Assembly: GCF_009923995.1 (NCBI RefSeq)
Contig: NZ_RFSK01000010.1
Location: 1 to 64,000 of the forward strand
Direction of reading: 5' to 3'
Origin: Janthinobacterium sp.
GTDB taxonomy: Bacteria > Pseudomonadota > Gammaproteobacteria > Burkholderiales > Burkholderiaceae_D
Length of the DNA stretch: 64,000 nucleotides
A program made the position numbers and the translations under genes. This document shows, piece after piece, positions 14,142 to 42,241 of this stretch. A model generated the notes under the pieces. It did no database searches, had not been told where the DNA came from, and saw only the letters and a program-made list of their open reading frames with translations. Within the stretch, counting starts at the first letter, position 1; every line of letters starts with the position of its first letter.

Positions 14142-14145
<4 letters not shown>
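12802..14145 (-). CDS. MFS exporter, EntS-like, for the NRPS product
   Basis: A 447-residue major-facilitator protein with about 12 membrane helices. It has the EntS/MFS_3-type loop motif DRWDRRRIMLCCD (about residues 68-80) and an N-terminal QMTSGIGSRLSSFALGIWVL. This subfamily exports enterobactin and other secondary metabolites. The ATG at 14145 overlaps the stop of the last synthetase gene (ATGA); a second in-frame ATG lies at 14151. The direct coupling to the reductase-terminated NRPS strongly suggests it exports the peptide product. Substrate identity is inference. Confidence 0.85.
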
Positions 14146-18682
<4,537 letters not shown>

Positions 18683-18686
<4 letters not shown>

Positions 18687-21600
18687 GTGTTTTCCAGTGC
18701 GCCGCCCAGCAGCGCTTCGATGTTGTCGTCCGAAAGGCCTTCCAGCTGGTCCAGCATGCTGGCCAGGTCGCCCGCATCCACGCTGTCGAGGCGGTTGCGC
18801 ATCAGGGCCGCGCCGAAGGCCGCCACGGTGGGTGCCTCGAACAGCAGGCGCAGACTGAGTTCGCCGCCAAACGCCTTTTGCGCGCGCATCACCAGCTGCG
18901 TGGCCAGCAGCGAGTGGCCGCCCAGCTTGAAGAAGTTGTCTTCGATGCCCACGCGCTCGAGGCCCAGCACTTCCTGCCACAGGCCGCACAGGAGCTCCTC
19001 GTCGCCGTTGCGTGGCGCGACGTAGCTGTGGCCGGGCGCCGCCTCGCTGTCGGGCACGGGCAGGGCATTGCGGTCGACCTTGCCGTTCGGCGTCATCGGC
19101 AGCTGCTCCAGCATCACGTAGGCCGAGGGCAGCATGTAGTCGGGCAGCTGCGGCGCGATGGCGTCGCGCAGGGCCGCCGCCTGCAGCACCTGGCCGGGCT
19201 GCGACAGCAGGTAGGCCACCAGGCGCTTGTCGCCGGGACGGTCTTCGCGGCAGATGACGACGGCCTGGCGCACGCCCGCCTGGTCGCCCAGCACGGCTTC
19301 GATCTCGCCCAGTTCGATGCGGTAGCCGCGCAGCTTGACCTGGTTGTCGATGCGGCCCAGCACTTCCATGTTGCCGTCGCGGCTCCAGCGCGCCAGGTCG
19401 CCCGTGCGGTACAGGCGCGCGCCCGGCTCCGGCGAATGGGGGTCGGCGAGGAATTTTTCCGCCGTCAGTTCGGGGCGCGCATGGTAGCCCTGCGCCACGC
19501 CGGCGCCGCCGATCAGCAGTTCGCCCGGGATGCCGGGCGGCAGCGGCTGCAGGAAGGCGTCCGCCACGTACAGGCGCGTATTGGCGATGGGACGGCCGAT
19601 GGCGATCGGCGCGCCGTCCGCCTCGATTTTTTCCACGCTCGACCAGATCGTCGTCTCCGTGGGGCCGTACATATTCCACAGGGTGCCGCCGCCGGCCAGC
19701 AGGCGGTCGGCCAGTTCGCGGCTCAGCGCCTCACCGCCGCACAGCATGGCCATGCCGGGACGGCTTTGCCAGCCCGCGTCGAGCAGCATGCGCCAGGTGG
19801 CGGGCGTCGCCTGCAGCATGCTGGCCTGCGAGCTGTCGAGCAGGCGCGCCAGCTCCATGCCGTCGGCCGCCGTGGCCGGGTCGGCGATCTCGATGCGCGC
19901 CCCCACCGTCAGCGGCAGCAGCAGTTCCAGCACGGCGATGTCGAACGACAGGGTGGTGACGGCGCACAGGCGGTCGGCGGCCGTGATGCCGGGCCGCTCC
20001 TGCATGGACAGCAGGAAGTTGACGACGGCGACGTGCGGCAGGCGCACGCCCTTGGGCCGGCCCGTCGAGCCGGAGGTGTAGATGACGTAGGCCGTCTCGC
20101 CCGCCGCCACGGGCGCGGGCGGCGCCACTTCGTTCAGGCGCGCCTCTTCCAGCAGCACCAGGGCCGGGCCGCTGGCCGGCAGCAGCGGCGCCAGCGCGCG
20201 CTGCGTGACGACGCAGCGCGTCTGCGCATCGTCGAGCATGAAGGCGATGCGCTCGGCCGGGTAGATGGGGTCGAGCGGCACGTAGGCGGCGCCCGCCTTG
20301 AGGATGCCCAGCAGCGCCACCAGCATGTCGGGCGAGCGCTTGACGAACAGCCCCACCAGCTCGCCCGGCTGCACGCCGCGCGCCAGCAGGTGGCGCGCCA
20401 GCGCATCGGCGCGCTGGTCCAGCTCCGCGTAGCTGAGTTCACGTCCCAGGTGCGACAGGGCGATGGCTTGCGGCGTGCGCGCCGCCTGCGCCTCGAACAG
20501 CGCATGCGCCGTCAGGGCGCCCCCGGCCGGCAGGGCGCGCGCCGTGTCGTTCCAGTCGTGCAGCACGCTGCGCCGCTCGGCGGGCGTCAGCAGCTCCAGC
20601 TCGGACAGGCGGCGGTCCGGGTCGCCCAGCGCGCTTTGCAGCAGCTGCTGCAGGTGGCCCGCCATGGCGGCGATGGTGGCCGCGTCGAACAGGTCGGTCG
20701 CGTACTCGATGTACATGGCCAGGCCGTGGTTTTCCTCGCTGGCGAACAGGGTCAGGTCGACGCGCGAGGTGCCCGACGAGATGACGCCCGGCTCGATCGG
20801 CGACAGCACCAGCCCGTGCAGGCGGATTTCCTCGGACGGGAAGTTCTGGAAGAACAGCATCACCTGGAACAGGGGCGAGTGGCTCAGCGAGCGGTCGATC
20901 TTCAGCACGTCGAGCAGGCGTTCGACGGGCATGTCCTGGTGCGCATACGCGCCCAGGGTGCCATCCTTGACGCGCGCCAGCAGTTCGCGGAAGGTGGGGT
21001 CGCCCGTCAGGTCAGTGCGCAGCGCCAGGGTATTGGCGAAAAAGCCCACCAGGGCCTCGAGTTCCTGGCGCGGCCGGTTCGCCACGCCCATGCCGATGAC
21101 GAGGTCGAGCTGGCCCGTGTAGCGCGCCAGCAGCGCCTTGAAGGCCGTGGCAAACACCATGAATGGCGTCGCGCCTTCCTGGCGGCTCAGGCGTTTCAAG
21201 CCGTCGTACAGGGTCGGGTCGAGGCGGTGCACGGAGGCCGCGCCGCGCCGGCTTTGCTGCGCGGGGCGCGGGCGGTCGCCCGGCAGCTCCAGCACGGGCG
21301 GGTGGCTGACGAGGCGCTGCTGCCAGTAGGCGAACTGCTTGCGCATGGTCTCGCCCTCGTCGTCGAGCAGGGCGTTCTGCCACAGCGTGTAGTCGGCGTA
21401 CTGCAGCGGCACCTCGGCCAGCGGCGACGGCAGGCCCGCGCAATAGGCGTCGTACAGCTGGCACAGTTCCGTGTAGATGATGGTGTAGGACCAGCCGTCG
21501 AGCGCGATGTGGTGGCCGTTCAGCACGAACAGGTGCTGTTCCTCGTCCAGGCTGATGAGCACGGCGCGCAGCAGCGGCCCCGTGCTGAAGTTGAACGGCG

Positions 21601-22039
21601 TGCCCGCTTCCTGCTGCGCCAGGGCGGCCGCTTCCTCGCGCCGTTGCGCGGCCGGCACATGCTCCAGGCTGACGCGGCGCAGCGGCACGGGCGCCGGCGG
21701 CAGGATGCGCTGCTGCGGTCCCACGTCGTCGGTGACGATGGCCGTGCGCAGCACTTCATGGCGGCGCACGATTTCATCGAGGCTGCGCTGCAGGATGGCG
21801 CAGTCGGGCCGCCCGCGCATCCACATGGCCGACGGCACGTTATAGGTGGCCGAATTCGGGTCCATCTGTTCCAGGAACCACAGGCGGTTCTGCGCATGCG
21901 ACACGGGAATGCGCGCGGGCCGGGGCTGGCGCGTGATCTCCCGGCGGGCGGCGGGCGCCGCCTGCTTGCTCAGCTGCTGCATCAGCAGCGCGCGTTTTTC
22001 CGGCGACAGGCCGGCCAGGCGTTGGTTCAAATCAGTCAT
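18683..22039 (-). CDS. NRPS module C-A-T, predicted glycine-activating
   Basis: A 1118-residue single module. A short helical N-terminus (about 1-40) precedes the C domain (about 45-470) with intact NGHHIALDGWS near 175. The A domain (about 490-1000) has YTSGSTGRPKG near 660, NMYGPTE and GRIDNQVKLRGYRIE. The T domain motif DNFFKLGGHSLL is near 1036. The hand-derived specificity pocket is D-I-L-Q-L-G-M-I-W-K, one residue from the glycine code DILQLGLIWK. The C-terminal 40 residues are Asp/Leu-rich and could be a docking helix. It starts 4 bp after the broken first synthetase and overlaps the terminal module gene. Confidence 0.93.
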
Positions 22040-22043
22040 GTCA

Positions 22044-23003
22044 TCATCCCAGGATAGGCGAGTCGCCGACGGGCGCGGGCGCGTGCTGCAATTGCGCGCT
22101 GGCCTGTTCGTCGCTCAGGTTGTCAAGTTGTTTCAAGAGTTCGTCGAGTGCGTCCGCATGCTGGCTGGCCAGCTGCAGGGCGATGGCGTCGGCCATCTGC
22201 GCCAGCCGCGGCGCGTCGAACACGGCGCGCAGCGGGAAATCGATGGCGTAGTGCTGGCCGATGCGCGCCACCAGCCGCGTCGCCAGCAGCGAGTTGCCGC
22301 CGACGTCGAAAAAGCTGTCGCCGGGCCCCACGCCGGCCAGGCGCAGCAGGGGGCGCCACAGCTGCGCCAGGGTTTCCTGCTCGGCCGACAGGGGCGCCGC
22401 CGGCGTGTCCACGGCCACGTCGGCCGGGTCGGGCAAGGCATGGCGGTCCACCTTGCCGTTGGCGTTCAGCGGCCAGCGCGGCAGCACGACGAAGGCCGCT
22501 GGCAGCATGTAGGCGGGCAGCTGGGCGCGCAGCGCTTCGCGCGCGGCGGCCACGTCGAAGCCGTCGGCGGCCGTCAGGTAGGCCACCAGGCGCTTGTCGC
22601 CGGGGCTGTCCTCGCGCGCCAGCACCAGCGCCTCGCGCACGCCGGCGCAGGCGGCCAGGCGCGCCTCGATCTCGCCCGGCTCGATGCGGTAGCCGCGGAT
22701 CTTCACCTGGAAGTCGTTGCGGCCGGCAAACTCGATGCTGCCGTCGGCGCGCCACTTGCCCAGGTCGCCGCTGCGGTACAGGCGCGCGCCCGGCTGCGCC
22801 GAGAACGGGTCGGCGATGAAGCGCTCGGCGCTGTGCTGCGGCAGGTTCAGGTAGCCGCGCGCCACGCCGTCGCCGCCGATATGGATCTCGCCGGGCACGC
22901 CCACGGGCACGGGCTGGCCCAGGGGGTCGAGCAGGTAGACCTGCGTGTTGCCGATGGGCCGGCCGATGGGAATGGCCCGCGCCTCGTGCGGCGCGCCCGT
23001 CAC
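22044..23003 (-). pseudogene. NRPS fragment: end of second A domain plus T domain, out of frame with upstream part
   Basis: This 319-codon frame continues the A2 domain after the frame disruption. It carries the A7-A10 motifs (YRSGDLGKW, GRNDFQVKIRGYRIE, NANGKVDRHALP) and an intact T domain (DSFFDVGGNSLLATRLV, about residue 235). The open frame extends upstream of this GTG to about 23096 and includes the NGYGPTETTTFATTH motif, so it is the natural continuation of the 23000-27898 gene. The GTG at 23003 overlaps the upstream stop (GTGA), so reinitiation is conceivable. The product would lack most of an A domain. It ends 4 bp before the next module's ATG. Confidence 0.8.
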
Positions 23004-26000
23004 GGCATGGGTGGTGGCGAACGTCGTCGTCTCGGTGGGGCCGTAGCCATTGAGCAGATGGCGCGGCGGGCGCTCTTCAGGAAAAGGTCGGTGCCTTCAC
23101 GGCGGGAAAGTTTGGCCTTGGGGCCGAGGCCGCCGAACGCCTCTTCCAGCGCATCCGCGTATTCATGGAACAGGCCCGCCGTCAGCCACAGGGCCGTCAC
23201 GCCGCCGTCGGCCAGCGCGCGGTTGAAGCGCGCCGGGTCGAGCAGCGTGTCCTGGTCGAACACCAGCACCGAGGCGCCGTTCAGCAGCGGCGCCCACAGC
23301 TCCCACGTGGCCGCGTCGAAGGCGGGGTTGGCGCAGTGGGCCACGCGGTCGCCGTGCTCCAGCGGGGCAAAGCCGCTGTCGACGGCCAGGCGCACGATGT
23401 TGCGGTGCTCGACCATCACGCCTTTCGGCATGCCCGTCGAGCCCGAGGTGTACATCACGTAGGCCAGCGACCGCGCGTCGATGCCGGCGACGGCGGGATC
23501 GGTATCGGGCAGGCCGTCGGAGGGCGCCGCGCCCGGCTCGGCCAGCAGCAGCGGCGGGCCGCCGGCGGGCAGGCGCGCGGCCAGGGCGGCGCTGCTGAGC
23601 ACCAGCGCGGGCGCGGCGTCGGCGAGGATGTGCGCCAGGCGCTGCGGCGGGCAATTCGCTTCCACCGGCACGTAGGCGGCGCCCGCCTTGAGGATGGCCA
23701 GCAAGGCGATCACCAGCGCATCGCTGCGCTCGAGCAGCACCAGCACGCGCTGGCCCGGCTGCACGCCGGCGGCCAGCAGCGCGTGCGCCTGGCGGTTGGC
23801 CTGCGCATCGAGGGCGGCATACGTCAGGCTGCGCGCGCCGTGGCGCAGGGCCAGCGCCTGCGGCGTGCGCGCCGCCTGTTGCGCGAACAGCGCAGGCACG
23901 CTGTCCTGGCGGGTCGGCGCGACGGTGGCGCGGTTGAAGTCCAGCAGCACCTGCCGGCGCGCCGCCGCATCCATCAGCGGCAAGCGGCCCAGCGCCAGGC
24001 TGTCGTCGGCCGCCATGGCCGCCAGCACGGCTTGCAGGCTGGCGGCCAGCCGCGCCATGCCGTCGGAGTCGAACAGCTCGCTCGCATATTCCAGGTGGCC
24101 GCTTACCTGTTCGCCGTCGTCGTCGAGCAGCAGGGACAGGTCGAAATGCGTGCTGGCCTGCGGCAGCGGCAATGGACGCGGATCGAACAGGGCGCCTTCG
24201 CCGTCCGGCGCCGGCGTGTTGTTGAGCGCCATGACGCTCTGGAACAGGGGGCTGTAGGCCAGGCTGCGCACGGGCTTGACGGCATCGACCACCTGGTCCA
24301 GCGGCAGGTCCTGGTGTTCGTAGGCCGCCAGCGCCGTGGCGCGGACGCGCGCCAGCAGTTCGGCCACCGTGGGATCGCCATGCAGGCGCACGCGCAGGGC
24401 CACCGTGTTGACGAAGAAGCCAGGCAGCGCTTCCAGCTCGGGCAGCGGGCGGTTGGCGACGGGCGTGCCGATGACGATGTCGTCCTGGCCGCCCAGGCGC
24501 GACAGCAGCGCGCTCCAGCCCGCGAGCAGGGTCATGAACAGGGTGGCGCCGTGGCGGGCGCTGAGCCGGCGCAGCGCTATTGCCAGGGGCGCCTCCAGGG
24601 CGAACGCCAGGCGCGCGCCGCGGTAGCTCTGGCGCGCGGGACGGGGATGGTCGAGCGGCAGTTCCAGCAGGGGCGGCGCGCCGTCCAGCTGGGCGCGCCA
24701 GTAGGCCTGCTGCGCCTGCAGCGGCGCCGCATGCGCGGCATGGCGCTGCCAGCGCGCGTAGTCCGCATATTGCAGCGCGGGCGGCGGCAGCGGGTCGGGC
24801 AGGCCGGCGGCGAAGGCGGCGTACAGGGCCGCCAGTTCCCCGCACAGCACGCCCAGCGACCAGCCATCGCTGATGATGTGGTGCTGCACCAGCAGCAGCT
24901 CATGCTCGTCGTCCGCGCGGCGCAGCAGCAGGGCGCGCAGCAGCGGCCCGCGCGCCAGGTCGAAGGGGCGGGCGATTTCTTCCCCGTGCAGGGCTGCCGC
25001 CGCGGCATCGCGCTGCGGCGCCGGCAGGCGGGAAAGGTCTTCCTGGCGCAGGGGGAAGGCGAACGGCGCGCCCGCCACCTGGTGCGGCACGCCGTCGCTG
25101 GCGCCGAAGTGCGTGCGCAGGATGGCGTGGCGCCGCAGCAGGGCGTCGAGCGCCTGGCGCAGGGCATCGGCTTGCAGCGGCCCGCGCAGGCGCCATGCCA
25201 CGGGCATGTGGTAGGCGGCGCCGGCGGCGGCGTCGAGCTGGTTCAGGAACCACAGGCGCTGCTGCGTGTACGACAGCGCCACCTTGTCGCCATCCGGTGT
25301 CGCCTGCGCCGACAGCGGGGGCAGGGCGGCGCCGGCCGGGGCGCCGTCGAGGAGGGCTGCCAGGCCGGCCACCGTGGGCGCGCCGAACAGCTGGCCCAGG
25401 GTCAGGGCCGTGCCGCTGGCCTGGCGCAGGCGCGACACGAGCTGGCCGGCCAGCAGCGAGTGGCCGCCCAGCTCGAAGAAGTCGTCGTGCCGGCCCACCT
25501 GCTCCAGTCCCAGCAGCTCGCGCCACAGGCGCGCCACGAGCATTTCCTGCAAGCCGACGGGCGCCTCCACCAGCCGTCCGGACAGGGCGGCGCGACCGGG
25601 CACGGGCAGGGCGCGGCGGTCCACCTTGCCGTTCGGCGTCATGGGGAACTGGTCCAGCAGCACGAAGGCAGGCGGCACCATGTAGGCCGGCAAGGCCTGC
25701 GCCAGCAGCGCGCGCAGGCTGGCGATGAGGGGCGCGCCGTCCGCCTGCGCCAGGTCCGCCGCGTCGGCGCGCACGTAGGCGGCCAGGCGCTTGTCGCCGG
25801 GACGGTCTTCGCGGCACACCACGACGGCCTGGCGGCAGGCCGGATGGCTGGCCAGCACGGCTTCGATTTCTCCCAGCTCGATGCGGAAGCCCCGCAGTTT
25901 CACCTGGTTGTCGATGCGGCCCAGCATGTCCAGGCGGCCGTCGCGGGTCCAGCGCACCAGGTCGCCCGTGCGGTACAGGCGGCTGCCGGGCGCGCCGGAA

Positions 26001-27898
26001 AACGGGTCGGCGATGAATTTTTCCGCCGTCAGTTCGGGCCGCGCATGGTAGCCGCTGGCCACGCCCAGGCCGCCGATCAGCAGCTCGCCGGGCACGCCCA
26101 CGGGCACGGGCTGCAGATGGCGGTCGACCAGGTAGACCTGGGTATTGCTGACGGGCTTGCCGATGGTGATCAGGCCATCGCCGGGCAGCACCCGTTCGCC
26201 CGTGGAGTAGATGGTGGTCTCCGTGGGGCCGTACAGGTTCCACAGCTGCGCCACCCTGGCCAGCAGGCCGTCGGCCAGCTCGCGCGTCATCGGCTCGCCG
26301 CCGCTGATGATGCGCAGGCCGCCGCGGCCCTGCCAGCCCGCATCGAGCAGCATGCGCCAGGTGGCGGGCGTGGCTTGCACGAGGGTGGCGCCGCAGGCGT
26401 CGATCAGCGCGGCCAGGGCCAGGCCATCGGCCGCCGTGGCCGTGTCGGCGATGGCCACCCTGGCGCCCACGGTGAAGGGCAGCAGCAGTTCCAGCACGGC
26501 GATGTCGAAGGACAGGGTGGTCACGGCGCAGATGGTGTCGGCAGCCGTCATGCCCGGCTGGTGCAGCATGGCGGCGAAAAAGTTCACCAGCGCGCGGTGC
26601 GGCAGGAGCACGCCCTTGGGGCGGCCCGTGGAGCCGGAGGTGTAGATCACGTAGGCGGGCGAGGCGGGATCGACGGTCACGCTGACGGCCGGCGCGTCCG
26701 CCGCGCGTTCGGCGATGTCGTCGATGGCGACGAATTCGCGGGCGCCGGCGGGCAGCTGCGCCTGCAGCGCGCGCTCGCCGAGCACCAGGCGCGCGCCCGA
26801 ATCGTCGAGCATGAAGGCCAGCCGTTCGGCCGGATAGGCGGGATCGAGGGGCACGTAGGCGGCGCCCGCCTTGAGGATGCCCATCAGGCCCGCCACCAGC
26901 TGGGGGCCGCGCCGCAGATGCAGTCCCACCAGGTCGCCCGGCTGCACGCCCCGCTCCAGCAGGCGCGCGGCGATGGCGTCGGCGCGGCGCGCCAGCTGGC
27001 CGTAGCTCACCTTCTGGCCGCCGTGCTCGATGGCCGTGCGCTGCGGTGTGCGGGCCGCCTGCGCATCGACGAAGTCGTGCGCATTGCGCAGCGCACCGAG
27101 GGGCAGGGCGCTGGCGTTCCAGTCGTGCAGCAGCAGTTGCCGCTGCGCGGGCGGCAGCAGGGGCAGGAGCACGAGCGGCCTGGCGGGATCGGCCAGCAGC
27201 GAATGCAGCAGCTGCTGCAGGTTGTCCGCCCAGGCGGCGATGCCTTCCCCGTTGAACAGGTCCAGCGCGAAGTCGAGCCGGCCCGCATAGCCGCCGTCGG
27301 CGCCATCCTCGAGCACCAGCGCCAGGTCGAAGGGCGTGTCCTGCGCAGGGTGGGCGCCGAAGGCCAGCACGGCCTGGAACAGGGGATGAAAGCTGTCGCT
27401 GCGCGGCGGCTGCAGCGTCTCGACCAGCTGCGCCAGGCTGCCGGCGCGGTGGCGCGCCGCTGCCGCCAGGACGGCACCGGCCTGCGCCAGCAGGCTGTGG
27501 CCCGTGCTGGCGTCATCGAGGCGCAGGCGCAGCGGGGCGACGGCATCGGGCTGCGCCGTGCCGATGACGAGGTCCTGCTGTCCGCTGAGGCGGGCCAGGA
27601 AAGCGGACCACGCCGTCAACAGCACGGCCAGCGGCGCCGCGCCGCAATGCCGGGCCAGCTGGCGCACTTGCATGGCCGTACCAGGGGCGATGGCGAAGGG
27701 CACGCTGCCCGTGCGCCAGCTTTGGCGGGCCGGCCGGGATCGTTCGCCGGGCAATTCCAGCAGGGCGGGGGCGCCGTACAGCTGCTGGCGCCAGAAATCG
27801 GCCTGCTCCTGTGCCAGCGGGGCGCCTGGGGCAGGACTGGCCGTGGCGTTTGCCAGGCGGCCATGCCGGAGAGTGTGGAAATAGTCTGTCAGAGCCAT
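23000..27898 (-). pseudogene. NRPS initiation protein: partial C-A-T-C-A, broken in the second A domain
   Basis: About 1632 codons. Residues 1-270 are only the C-terminal lobe of a condensation domain: no HHxxxDG motif is present, and the upstream DNA does not encode it. A1 (about 275-770) has YTSGSTGRPKG near 417 and pocket D-I-L-Q-I-G-L-I-Y-K, glycine-like. T1 (DDFFELGGHSLL) is near 803. C2 (about 850-1290) has intact QHHIISDGWS near 1006. A2 starts near 1320 with YTSGSTGMPKG near 1480 and FDAATWELW. From residue 1592 it becomes ribosomal S4 sequence, then off-frame residues, and stops at 23000. ATG 27898 is chosen; GTG 27907 is an alternative. Marked as a pseudogene because the A2 domain cannot fold as encoded. 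Confidence 0.85.
23063..23125 (-). other. Ribosomal protein S4 (rpsD) coding fragment inside an NRPS A domain
   Basis: These 63 bp, read in the frame of the upstream NRPS part, encode 21 residues that match the N-terminus of bacterial S4 (about residues 6-26), including KLSRREGTDLFLKS. S4 is recognisable because this motif is nearly invariant. Codons such as CTT (twice) and CGT contrast with the CTG/CGC habit of the surrounding synthetase. The block stands where an A domain should read like LRYLIVGGDALDP; beyond it the NRPS sequence resumes in another frame at RHLLNGYGPTE. No flanking inverted repeats or target duplication are visible. It may be natural recombination or an assembly chimera. 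Confidence 0.85.
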
Positions 27899-29246
27899 GG
27901 TGTACACCGAAAAGTGAGGCAGTGAGTCAGTCCGGTCCGTGCCAGGCGGGCTGGAACGGGATCGGGGCGGGAAATCAGCGTTGCGAATATAGCATCGTGT
28001 TTTTCATTTCCAGGGCATCTTGGTGTTTTCAACTTAATAACAACACTTGGTTTGAATAATGATTTTTTAGCCAATTTTTCGATTATTCGTGCGCACGGGC
28101 GGGCGCCATGATCCGCGCTGTCGCGCTAATTGCGGCGCTGCAGAAAAAAGGGGCTTATATCGGAAGATGGATATCGGAAGGGCGGCCTGGATGCACTCTC
28201 CTGGTGCAAATGGAGCGCCAGGGAGGGGGTATAAACTGGCCGGCATAGCCGCTGCGGTGCGGGTTTTTGCCAGGGCGGCGGCCGGAAATGAATTGGCCGG
28301 CAAGGCATGGATGGGAGAGGAAAGAGGAATGGCGCCGGATACGCCAGCAATACGCCGAAAGGCACCCTGGGCGCAGCTTCGATATTGTTAACTGTTTGTA
28401 ATTTTTAGTAAATTATAAAAACATGGAAAATATTGATTTGATTCAATAACGCAGGAGAAAAATCAGGAAAACACGTCATATTCATTGATTATTTTGTAAT
28501 ATTAAAAATATGGCATATATGCTACGGCTTCAAGGGCAAAAGCATTATCCGCGCGGATGCGCGGCGGGCCGCTGTCCTGCCTTCGGCCCTGGGACGCCCA
28601 TAAATGGGGGGATTTCCAGTCGCTGCACGAGTAGAGGGCATACTGATAGTCACAAATTTAATAATTGCTTAAGTATTAAATATCATTTCCATATTTTCAC
28701 AGAAATTATCATCTTTATCATTGATTTTCGATATAAGGAATTTCCTATATGAGCTTGGCTAAATACGTCCAACATATATAAAAATAAGATAATTTAATGC
28801 GTTTCGGTAGAGGCTGGCTATCAAAAGTATGGTATGGCGGCGGCGTGCATATTTATATTGGAAAAGATGGATCGCCTAAATGTCGTGAATTGATGCTTAT
28901 CTGCCGATAAAAATGCTTTAGGCTTAAATGAAATGGTATGCCTGTGTATATGTGTGAGTTTCTTGCTGTAATGGCGATAATACGCTTCTGACGCGATAAG
29001 CTGGCCTGGACGGGGATTATGCACGGGGTGGTGGCCGGTATTATCTGGCGTAGGGGAAAGGGTGGTGACTATCAATAAGAAAGTTACTTGGAGAAAACCT
29101 CGATAGCTGCAAAGAACGCTGTTGTGGGAAAAAAACGGGTAGAGTAGCGTCGCTTCCAGGGTGGCGCATTGTGGCCTGCTGGGGTATTCTTGCGTACAAA
29201 GATGATAATAAATGTATTTTTGCGGAAACAATCGAACGAGGTAGGC
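27899..29246. other. AT-rich intergenic spacer, no convincing gene
   Basis: This 1.35-kb gap separates the divergent NRPS locus and hydrolase/kinase pair. Base composition falls sharply, with long A/T runs around 28000-28080, 28390-28510 and 28640-28950. Short open frames here lack ribosome-binding sites and recognisable sequence. It presumably carries the NRPS promoter(s) reading left and the hydrolase promoter reading right. I see no clear -35/-10 pair, repeats, tRNA or IS remnants. Confidence 0.6.
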
Positions 29247-39791: not shown

Positions 39792-39992
39792 ATTGGTCTG
39801 GCAAGCAACCTGTCTCAAAGTATTCCTGCAGGCCCGGCCGCTTGTGGCGGCCCGGGCGGGAAGAATGAGCATAGCGAAAATATTTCTACGTGGCAAGAGT
39901 GCATGCTTGTTCACGTTTATTATTTTTGTTGCAAAAGAATAGGATGCGCTGGCAGGCGGCGTGCGGGTCCGTCGCGGCGGGCCGCGCGCGCC

Positions 39993-42062
39993 TCAGTCGG
40001 GGCTGTCGCAGGGGCCGCTGCCATAGGGGCTGATGCGTCCCGGCGGCGGCACGCGGCGCGCGCTGAAGTCGCTGGCCAGGGTGGCCAGCGGCAGCTCGGC
40101 CGTGGTGCTCGCTTCCGTGCCGCTCACCGTGCCCCGCACGGTCAGCGCCAGTTGCACCCAGGAACCGTAGTTGCGGGGATAGCTGACGGTGACGGTGGCC
40201 ATGCCCAGCGCATCGCTGGGGCCGCTGGCGCTGACGGTGAGGGGGATGCCCGGGTCCAGCACGCCATTGCCGTTGCGGTCATATGCGGCGTCGTAGATGC
40301 CGTTGCGCAGCACGTCCTCGTTGGGACAGCTGTAGTGGGGCAGGGCCAGGCGCCACACGCCCGTGTCGGGAAATTCCGGCTTGTCCGCCTCCCACACATA
40401 ATAGCCCTTGGCATACCGGCTGGGCCAGGCGGCGGCCGTGATGGCGACGCCGGGCACGGCGTTGCCGGCGCTGTCGGAAACGAAGACGGCAAACTCCTTC
40501 TGCAGCACGCTGGCCGAATACTCGCGCACCTGGTTGCCCGTGCCCAGCTTGATCGACAGGGCCTGGCGCGCCACCGTCAGGCTGACCTGTCCGCTTGCCG
40601 CCGCCTGCGCGGCACCGTCGATGCGGGCCTGGATCAGCACGCCGTCGCGGCCGCTGTCGGCCGGTCCCGCCACGTAGATGGCCCGCGCCAGCCCGTCGCT
40701 GCCCGTGTAGACGCGGCCCGCCTGCCGCAGGAAACCGCCGCTGGGGTCGCTCACGATGGTAAACACGACGGGAGCATTCTTGACGAGGTTGTTCGCCGCG
40801 CCATCGCGCACGACGGCGCTGATGACGCTGGCCTGCTCGCCCGACGCGGCCGTGCTGGCGCGCAGGACGGCCGGTTCGGCCTGCACGGCCAGCGTGCTGG
40901 CGCCGCTCAGGGGCGCGACGAATTCCAGCCGCGTCTGCGCCGTGGGGCCGCCCGCTACGGCGGCCGTGACGGTGGCCACGCCCGCATGCGCCGACTGGAG
41001 ATAGCTGCGCGGCAAATTGCCATTGTTAAAGGTCAAGCTGGGCGGCAGCGCCTGGCTGCAGCCGCTGTCGCCGAACAGGCTGCCGCGCGAAGTGGCCAGG
41101 CTGGCGCTGCCGGACTGCGTCACGCCCGCTTTGTCGTAGCGCACGTCGATGGCCTGGCAGGCGAAGGTGGGAATTTCCGGCAGCACGTCCGCGCCGCTGG
41201 CGTCCTGGCTGATGGCCGGACTCAGGCGCAGGTCGCTGCCGGCCACGGCATAGGCTTGCGCGGCGCTGGCGCCCAGCGCGCCGGCGGACACGGCATCCTT
41301 GCCCAGGCTGCCCGCCGTGAGGCGCAGCAGCAGCTGGCCTTGCGCATTGCTGACGGCCGCGCCGCCATCCTTCACGCGCAGGCTGTTGCCGGCGCCCGTG
41401 CCGTAGCTGACGGCGGCGCCAGCCACGGGCCGGCGCGCCGAGTCGCGCACGGTGACGGTGAAGTCCGCGCCCTGGCCCAGCAGCAAGGCCGATGGCCCCA
41501 GCAGTTCCACCGTGCTGCCCGTCACGGCCACCGTGCCGCTGCCGCTGCGCGCACCCACCGTGGCCGTCACCGTGATGGAGCGGTTGCCGTTGGCCCCGCC
41601 CGTGCCCAGCAGGGCGCGTGCCTGGCCATTCTTGTCCGTCACGCTGTCGACGCTGCCGAGGATGCCCGAATCGGCGGCAAAGGAAATCTTTGCGTTCGGC
41701 AAGGCCAGGTTGGCGCCATCCTTGACCAGGGCCGTGACGGCCACCTCGCCGCCGGGCAGGCCCGCCGAGGCCAGTTCCGTGCTGGAAAACACCAGCTTGA
41801 CGTCGGCGGCCAGGCTGGCCGGCTCGGGCGGCGTGACGGGGGGAATCACGGGCGGCGTCACGGGCGGCGTCACGGGCGGCACGACGGGATCGGGCAGGGT
41901 GCCGCCGCAGTCGGCCGTCCCATGCAGGGTGCAGCCGCCGGACGCCTGCGTCCCGGCGCTGCCTGCGCCGCCGCAGCCGGCCAGGCAGGCGAAGAGGGCG
42001 GCGCACAGCGATGCCGGCAGGTGGTGCAGGGGGCGGGCGTGGCGCAGGCGGACGAAGGGCAC
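39993..42062 (-). CDS. Large secreted lipoprotein with bacterial Ig-like repeats
   Basis: A 689-residue predicted lipoprotein. The GTG at 42062 has GGAG upstream and gives a classic signal peptide ending in lipobox LAGC (Cys30). A Pro/Val/Thr linker (about 55-80) made of PPVT repeats follows. Several Ig-like (Big-1/invasin-type) domains come next, each with a DGAN/ADSG or DSAG-type motif and alternating strands (about 85-180, 180-260, 370-480, 480-620). This architecture is typical of cell-surface adhesion or structural proteins. The in-frame TTG at 42101 would lengthen the signal region without benefit. Confidence 0.8.
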   Translation of the reverse strand: MPFVRLRHARPLHHLPASLCAALFACLAGCGGAGSAGTQASGGCTLHGTADCGGTLPDPVVPPVTPPVTPPVIPPVTPPEPASLAADVKLVFSSTELASAGLPGGEVAVTALVKDGANLALPNAKISFAADSGILGSVDSVTDKNGQARALLGTGGANGNRSITVTATVGARSGSGTVAVTGSTVELLGPSALLLGQGADFTVTVRDSARRPVAGAAVSYGTGAGNSLRVKDGGAAVSNAQGQLLLRLTAGSLGKDAVSAGALGASAAQAYAVAGSDLRLSPAISQDASGADVLPEIPTFACQAIDVRYDKAGVTQSGSASLATSRGSLFGDSGCSQALPPSLTFNNGNLPRSYLQSAHAGVATVTAAVAGGPTAQTRLEFVAPLSGASTLAVQAEPAVLRASTAASGEQASVISAVVRDGAANNLVKNAPVVFTIVSDPSGGFLRQAGRVYTGSDGLARAIYVAGPADSGRDGVLIQARIDGAAQAAASGQVSLTVARQALSIKLGTGNQVREYSASVLQKEFAVFVSDSAGNAVPGVAITAAAWPSRYAKGYYVWEADKPEFPDTGVWRLALPHYSCPNEDVLRNGIYDAAYDRNGNGVLDPGIPLTVSASGPSDALGMATVTVSYPRNYGSWVQLALTVRGTVSGTEASTTAELPLATLASDFSARRVPPPGRISPYGSGPCDSPD
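41842..41881 (-). repeat. 12-bp tandem repeat encoding the PPVT linker
   Basis: Units of the form GGCGTCACGGGC repeat about three times with one variant copy. They encode the Pro-Pro-Val-Thr linker of the lipoprotein. Unit number could vary between strains by slippage. Confidence 0.6.
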
Positions 42063-42241
42063 GATGGGTCTCCGGGAGCTTGCCGAATTGCTCGGCGTCA
42101 ATTTCTAAAGAGTAGCTTTTGCACGCGGCAGCTACTTGATGCAAAGCAAGCTTGTTGTCCGGGCCGTGCCGGAAGTATTTTTCTGGTGCAATGACGCCCG
42201 TTCTGATAAGATAACGCCCCTTTATTCAGGGAAGGGTCGAC

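What the first reader, a model, noticed from the sequence alone, without database searches (positions are those of the whole stretch)
23063..23125. Ribosomal protein S4 sequence embedded in an NRPS adenylation domain
The upstream part of A2 runs normally to EEAFGG, then 21 codons spell the near-invariant N-terminus of ribosomal protein S4 (including [14 protein letters not shown]). The synthetase then resumes at RHLLNGYGPTE in a different frame. The stretch that should hold VGGDALDP and two specificity positions (299 and 301 in GrsA numbering) is gone. Codons such as CTT and CGT differ from the flanks. No transposon ends or target duplications are seen. Either a template-switch/microhomology event replaced part of a biosynthetic gene with a housekeeping fragment, or the assembly joined a chimera.
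Basis: partly seen in the sequence, partly recalled or inferred. Interest (0 to 1): 0.85.

Follow-up and report, generated by a model that had tools for sequence, protein, structure and literature searches.

The report
Foreign rpsD scrap inside an NRPS gene
A scrap of about 53 bases of a ribosomal gene from another bacterial family sits in place of part of a peptide-synthetase gene and breaks it, most likely a scar of stray DNA copied in at a short matching sequence, although an assembly error cannot be ruled out without the raw reads.

Summary
On the minus strand at about 23057-23129, an NRPS adenylation domain (A2) lost about 66 nt and gained 53 nt of rpsD (ribosomal protein S4). The net change of -13 nt shifts the frame. 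The scrap is not the strain's own rpsD (7 of 53 nt differ). A2 is uninterrupted in the three other genomes of the genus where it was found; the contig of one (G025) is 96.5% identical around the site. Host and donor share 2-3 nt at one junction and 7-17 nt at the other, depending on which donor and host proxy are compared. [quoted passage not shown] The genome has comEC- and dprA-type genes in open frames. The main rival is a chimeric library molecule or assembly error: the assembly is a draft, genera near the donor are listed as reagent contaminants, and no reads were available. If real, it is a natural cross-family case of a known kind of event, not a new system.

The parts
23074..23126 (-). 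Donor-only rpsD segment (53 nt) that replaces about 66 nt of the A2 coding sequence
   Evidence: Identical to L034-L037 and L069; 7 mismatches to the strain's own rpsD; 6-8 mismatches to the 26 rpsD loci held of the same genus; boundaries from comparison with uninterrupted relatives
23057..23073 (-). Junction microhomology on the side towards the 3' end of the gene: up to 17 nt shared by the G035 NRPS and rpsD of three donors; 11-13 nt for four donors identical over the 53 nt; with G025 as host proxy 14 and 8-10 nt
23127..23129 (-). Junction microhomology on the 5' side of the gene: CCT (2-3 nt)
23000..27907 (-). Upstream part of the NRPS gene (adenylation, PCP and condensation domains and the start of A2), now ending 20 codons after the rpsD-like ARR at a stop
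   Evidence: Pfam, translation; in G035 the corresponding region is one 2,074-aa ORF
22044..23003 (-). Downstream part of the NRPS gene (end of A2, AMP-binding_C, PCP), out of frame with the upstream part
   Evidence: Pfam

Best explanation
[quoted passage not shown] A short single-stranded piece of rpsD from a bacterium of the Comamonadaceae/Sphaerotilaceae kind (inferred: taken up by natural transformation) annealed to the NRPS gene at a microhomology of about 8-17 nt, was joined at the other end at 2-3 nt (CCT), and was copied or ligated into the daughter strand. About 66 nt of the gene was replaced by 53 nt of rpsD. The patch has no function of its own; its effect is to frameshift and truncate the NRPS in the middle of A2. 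Shown: foreign origin of the DNA, replacement rather than insertion, frameshift, junction microhomology, uninterrupted relatives. Inferred: that it exists in the living strain, uptake from outside, single-strand annealing, loss of the peptide product.
For: 53 of 53 nt identical to rpsD of four named records (two Polaromonas, a Rubrivivax MAG, a Methylibium MAG) and of the unnamed G677. Own rpsD differs at 7 of 53 and the 26 rpsD loci held of the genus at 6-8. 244 of 399 genomes sampled from the family of G303 match the 70-nt query at E<=1e-20. A2 uninterrupted in the 3 of 39 other genomes of the genus that gave a near-full-length match. The G025 contig is 96.5% identical over 6,615 columns with non-multiple-of-3 gaps only at this spot. 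Junctions share 2-3 nt and 7-17 nt. With donor L071, the junction is the longest exact match between rpsD and the host locus on either strand: 17 nt for G035, 14 nt for G025. A random junction reaches 8 nt with frequency 4e-4 and 11 nt with 3e-5. comEC- and dprA-type genes in open frames. The 57-nt core has 4 exact matches in the 84,980-genome collection, all within rpsD, so it is not a common vector or adapter sequence.
Against: No read support could be examined. The assembly is a draft of 154 contigs. No other foreign patch turned up, though I looked only at parts of the window, and from the 8-kb donor ribosomal locus L034 nothing else close was found in the genome except one 31-nt match at 94%, so there is no sign of a strain prone to such events; recJ, whose loss is said to favour such events (recall), is present in an open frame. 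No donor examined has both the 53 identical nt and the 17-nt junction match: four identical ones give 11-13 nt (G035) or 8-10 nt (G025), and L035, not run, about 7 nt by its letters. For L034 and L069 a longer chance match exists elsewhere in the G035 and G025 loci. [quoted passage not shown]
Confidence: 0.6

Rival explanations
1. Artefact: a chimeric library molecule or a wrong join in the assembly brought a contaminating Comamonadaceae/Sphaerotilaceae-type rpsD read into the NRPS contig at a stretch of low coverage.
For: Draft assembly, 154 contigs. The gene is one of several NRPS genes with similar A domains, and the contig of the close relative G025 ends about 440 bp away, at window 23570. 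The strain's own ribosomal operon is split between contigs after rpsD (C135) and before an rpoA-like ORF (C73). Polaromonas, Pelomonas and Curvibacter are listed as reagent contaminants (PMC4228153, passages). PCR chimeras also use short 3' matches (established knowledge).
Against: Two junctions are needed on one molecule, 53 nt apart, with both NRPS flanks in register to within 13 nt. The 2-3 nt junction is far too short for read overlap or a de Bruijn join (inference). A rare chimera should lose against correct reads (inference). Contamination estimate 0.42%. No second, uninterrupted copy of A2 found in the genome. Composition gave no sign of donor contigs, but it is a weak test: of 120 contig stretches fetched 24 read as N, and the two outliers among the 96 readable ones (G+C 0.545 and 0.552) were not followed up.
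Confidence: 0.34
2. Template switch to the strain's own rpsD (intragenomic replacement), followed by divergence.
For: Same protein sequence ([21 protein letters not shown]).
Against: Own rpsD differs at 7 of 53 nt while rpsD of other families is identical; the flanking NRPS is 96.5% identical to a relative that lacks the patch.
Confidence: 0.02
3. Insertion by a mobile element or integron-like system carrying an rpsD scrap.
For: Foreign DNA inside a gene.
Against: Host DNA was replaced, not merely interrupted; the foreign part is only 53 nt, and its edges are plain microhomologies.
Confidence: 0.02

Closest known systems
[quoted passage not shown] Harms et al. 2016, PNAS, doi 10.1073/pnas.1615819114; paper not held, seen as a reference entry and named in a passage of PMC7192050)
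   Same: Replacement of a short genomic stretch by a short heterologous segment (title: of intragenomic or extragenomic origins), joined at microhomologies (recalled)
   Different: Found in a draft genome rather than selected in the laboratory; donor is another family; neither competence nor the event itself is tested
Homology-facilitated illegitimate recombination (HFIR)
   Same: Foreign DNA anchored on one side by sequence match and joined illegitimately on the other (abstract of PMC3240628 in the listing)
   Different: HFIR uses homologous recombination at one end; here the anchor is at most 17 nt and the patch is tiny
Microhomology-mediated template switching (FoSTeS/MMBIR-like; recalled)
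   Same: Short tract copied from another template with microhomology at the switch points
   Different: The template would have to be foreign DNA inside the cell, not a chromosomal site

Membership tests
SPDIR | A short host tract is replaced by a short heterologous tract | tested here: met
   About 66 nt replaced by 53 nt against G035; 414 against 401 nt for both G025 and G035
SPDIR | Microhomology at the junctions (feature recalled) | tested here: met
   2-3 nt and 7-17 nt over eight donors and two host proxies; the true donor and the host sequence before the event are unknown
SPDIR | Source of the patch identifiable, inside or outside the genome | tested here: met
   rpsD of other families, identical over 53 nt in five loci; own rpsD excluded
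SPDIR | Event present in the living cell, formed by annealing of single-stranded DNA at replication (recalled) | not testable with these tools
   No reads, no strain
SPDIR | Route for extragenomic DNA (competence) | tested here: inconclusive
   comEC- and dprA-type genes in open frames, but the two families also ring in 10 and 11 of 14 control genomes, E. coli included, so this does not show competence
HFIR | Homologous anchor on one side, longer than a microhomology | tested here: not met
   Longest exact match found at either junction is 17 nt
Transposon or integron insertion | Inserted element with ends, no loss of host DNA | tested here: not met
   Host DNA lost, 53 nt only, plain junctions

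The most novel reading that the evidence does not exclude
This is a natural, recent, cross-family SPDIR scar: a scrap of environmental DNA from a Comamonadaceae/Sphaerotilaceae-type housekeeping gene was written into the genome of a member of another family at a microhomology and knocked out a biosynthetic gene. If so, short scraps of highly conserved genes can serve as traceable labels for a process thought to be negligible in nature, and scanning genomes for out-of-place ribosomal peptides would measure its rate.
Probability: 0.55. Interest if true: 0.62.

Novelty: new member of a known kind. Interest (0 to 1): 0.5.

Why it matters
[quoted passage not shown] Here the foreign DNA is a highly conserved gene fragment, so both its origin and its edges can be read. 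If confirmed by reads, it gives a concrete natural case and a simple search strategy (conserved ribosomal fragments out of place). If not, it is a warning that a draft genome holds a chimeric 53-nt patch that makes a biosynthetic gene look broken.

Tried and rejected
Own rpsD as source: rejected. Mobile element: rejected (replacement of host DNA, 53 nt). Second, uninterrupted copy of A2 in the genome: none found. Further foreign patches in the window: only aligned blocks over 6 kb were scanned, with the 15 worst spots kept for each, and 11 spots besides this one were printed. By eye they are small indels or diverged stretches; their origin was not searched, and blocks below 6 kb and parts without a counterpart in G035 were not scanned. 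Further pieces of the donor's ribosomal locus in the genome: of 14 matches to L034, 13 are elsewhere than this site; they are 69-86% identical, orthologues and tRNA-like by my reading, save one of 31 nt at 94% on C144:99763-99793. Contaminant contigs by trinucleotide composition: one search was sorted wrongly because of stretches of N and is replaced, which shows two outliers (L176 and L178, lower G+C); not followed up. 16S search in the own genome found none, so neither the species nor a contaminant could be named that way. The alignment had the window on the other strand and its columns were not used. The SPDIR paper itself is not held; what I say of its details is recall. Paper searches on the mechanism; none was made for this strain or gene, since the strain is unnamed.

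Full report
What is there. The NRPS gene runs on the minus strand. Its upstream ORF spans 27907..23000 and holds adenylation, PCP and condensation domains and the start of A2; its downstream part spans 23003..22044 and holds the end of A2, AMP-binding_C and PCP. At 23126..23074 the frame reads rpsD-like residues: [28 protein letters not shown], followed by 20 out-of-frame codons and a stop. RHLLNGYGPTE follows in another frame.

What it replaced. In the genus, 40 genomes were searched, the own one included. Three others hold this A2 over nearly the whole 401-nt query: G025 (87%), G035 (86%) and G013 (67%). All three read an ordinary domain there. Of the other 36, 35 gave only partial matches (in the listed rows mostly at the rpsD positions of the query) and one none. 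The G025 contig is 96.5% identical over 6,615 columns (window 16970-23570), and its only gaps that are not multiples of three lie at 23079-23126. G035 is 91.0% identical over window 88-31606; it has non-triplet gaps elsewhere too, many of them in poorly matching stretches such as 28.2-29.2 kb, but between 14142 and 27907 (the NRPS ORFs) the only ones that do not cancel out nearby lie at this place. Relative to G035, 66 nt are gone and 53 nt of rpsD are present, net -13 (the script's printed 67 includes one base of the junction homology). In G035 the gene is a single 2,074-aa ORF.

Where the DNA comes from. The strain has one rpsD by the Pfam search, 86% identical over 65 nt, with 7 of 53 mismatches in the donor-only stretch; the 26 rpsD loci held of the genus have 6-8. 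The 57-nt core has four exact matches in the collection of 84,980 genomes (the window's own genome may be left out), all rpsD: Polaromonas glacialis R3-9, a Polaromonas MAG, a Rubrivivax MAG and a Methylibium MAG. NCBI places Polaromonas in the Comamonadaceae and the other two in the Sphaerotilaceae. Of 399 genomes sampled from the family of G303, which is not the host's family in the tool's scheme, 244 match the 70-nt query at E<=1e-20, best 68 of 68 nt in G677. That this unnamed family is the one that holds the named records is inference. The host's family is unnamed; Oxalobacteraceae-like is my recall from its rpsD.

Junctions. Eight of the 50 donor loci aligned were compared with two host proxies. 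On the 5' side of the gene host and donor share CCT (2-3 nt). On the 3' side they share 7-17 nt against G035 and 7-14 nt against G025. The value 7 is L087, which differs from the patch and cannot be the donor. Four loci identical over the 53 nt (L034, L036, L037, L069) give 11-13 (G035) or 8-10 (G025); L035, also identical, was not run and would give about 7 by its printed letters. Those with 17 nt differ from the patch at one position in the core. Between the G035 locus and the L071 rpsD the 17-mer is the longest exact match on either strand; between the G025 locus and L071 it is 14 nt, also at the junction. For L034 and L069 the longest match lies elsewhere. Random junctions reach 8, 11 and 17 nt with frequencies 4e-4, 3e-5 and 2.5e-6 (400,000 draws; the host sequence used contained the patch itself, which inflates the tail).

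How it most likely arose. Replacement of a short tract, a foreign source, a longer microhomology on one side and a minimal one on the other are what short-patch double illegitimate recombination would leave (SPDIR; named in a passage of PMC7192050; original paper known here by its reference entry, details recalled). Genes for DNA uptake and processing (comEC and dprA types) are present, as is recJ. Uptake itself is inferred. The patch is a scar: it frameshifts A2 and removes the stretch around LAGGDVLDP that forms part of the substrate pocket (pocket numbering recalled), so the NRPS is very probably inactive.

Why not certain. The assembly is a draft, the reads are not available, and 24 of the 120 contig stretches fetched (each under 3 kb) read as N. 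Two of the 96 readable stretches stand out in composition by lower G+C; they were not followed up. Genera near the donor are listed as reagent contaminants (PMC4228153, passages). A double chimera with a 2-3 nt junction, in register and winning over correct reads, seems harder to produce than a single chimera, which is why I favour a real event at about 0.6 against 0.34 for an artefact.

Verdict. Real sequence feature of this assembly, a foreign rpsD patch by replacement, and a new natural example of a known kind of event if reads confirm it.

Noticed in passing
G000:C135 end and C73 start: The own ribosomal operon is split between contigs after rpsD, at a palindrome that looks like a terminator; C73 begins with an rpoA-like ORF (name recalled from its sequence).
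   Followed up: partly
window 23570: The contig C49 of the close relative G025 ends here, about 440 bp from the patch, so this NRPS stretch may be hard to assemble.
   Followed up: partly
L176 (G000:C69:1-20000) and L178 (G000:C71:1-20000): Two contig starts with lower G+C (0.545 and 0.552 against a mean of 0.645) and unusual trinucleotide use, perhaps islands, prophage or plasmid.
   Followed up: no
window 39918-42175: About 2.2 kb without a counterpart in the aligned G035 region; ORF 39993..42101 on the minus strand matches Big_1 and, just above the cut-off, Invasin_D3 (Ig-like), an adhesin-like protein.
   Followed up: no
window 14142-19679: An NRPS-type ORF on the minus strand ends in a NAD_binding_4 reductase domain, suggesting reductive release of the peptide.
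   Followed up: no
whole genome G000: No 16S rRNA found in the assembly; the fetched contigs under 3 kb read as N, so it may lie there.
   Followed up: no
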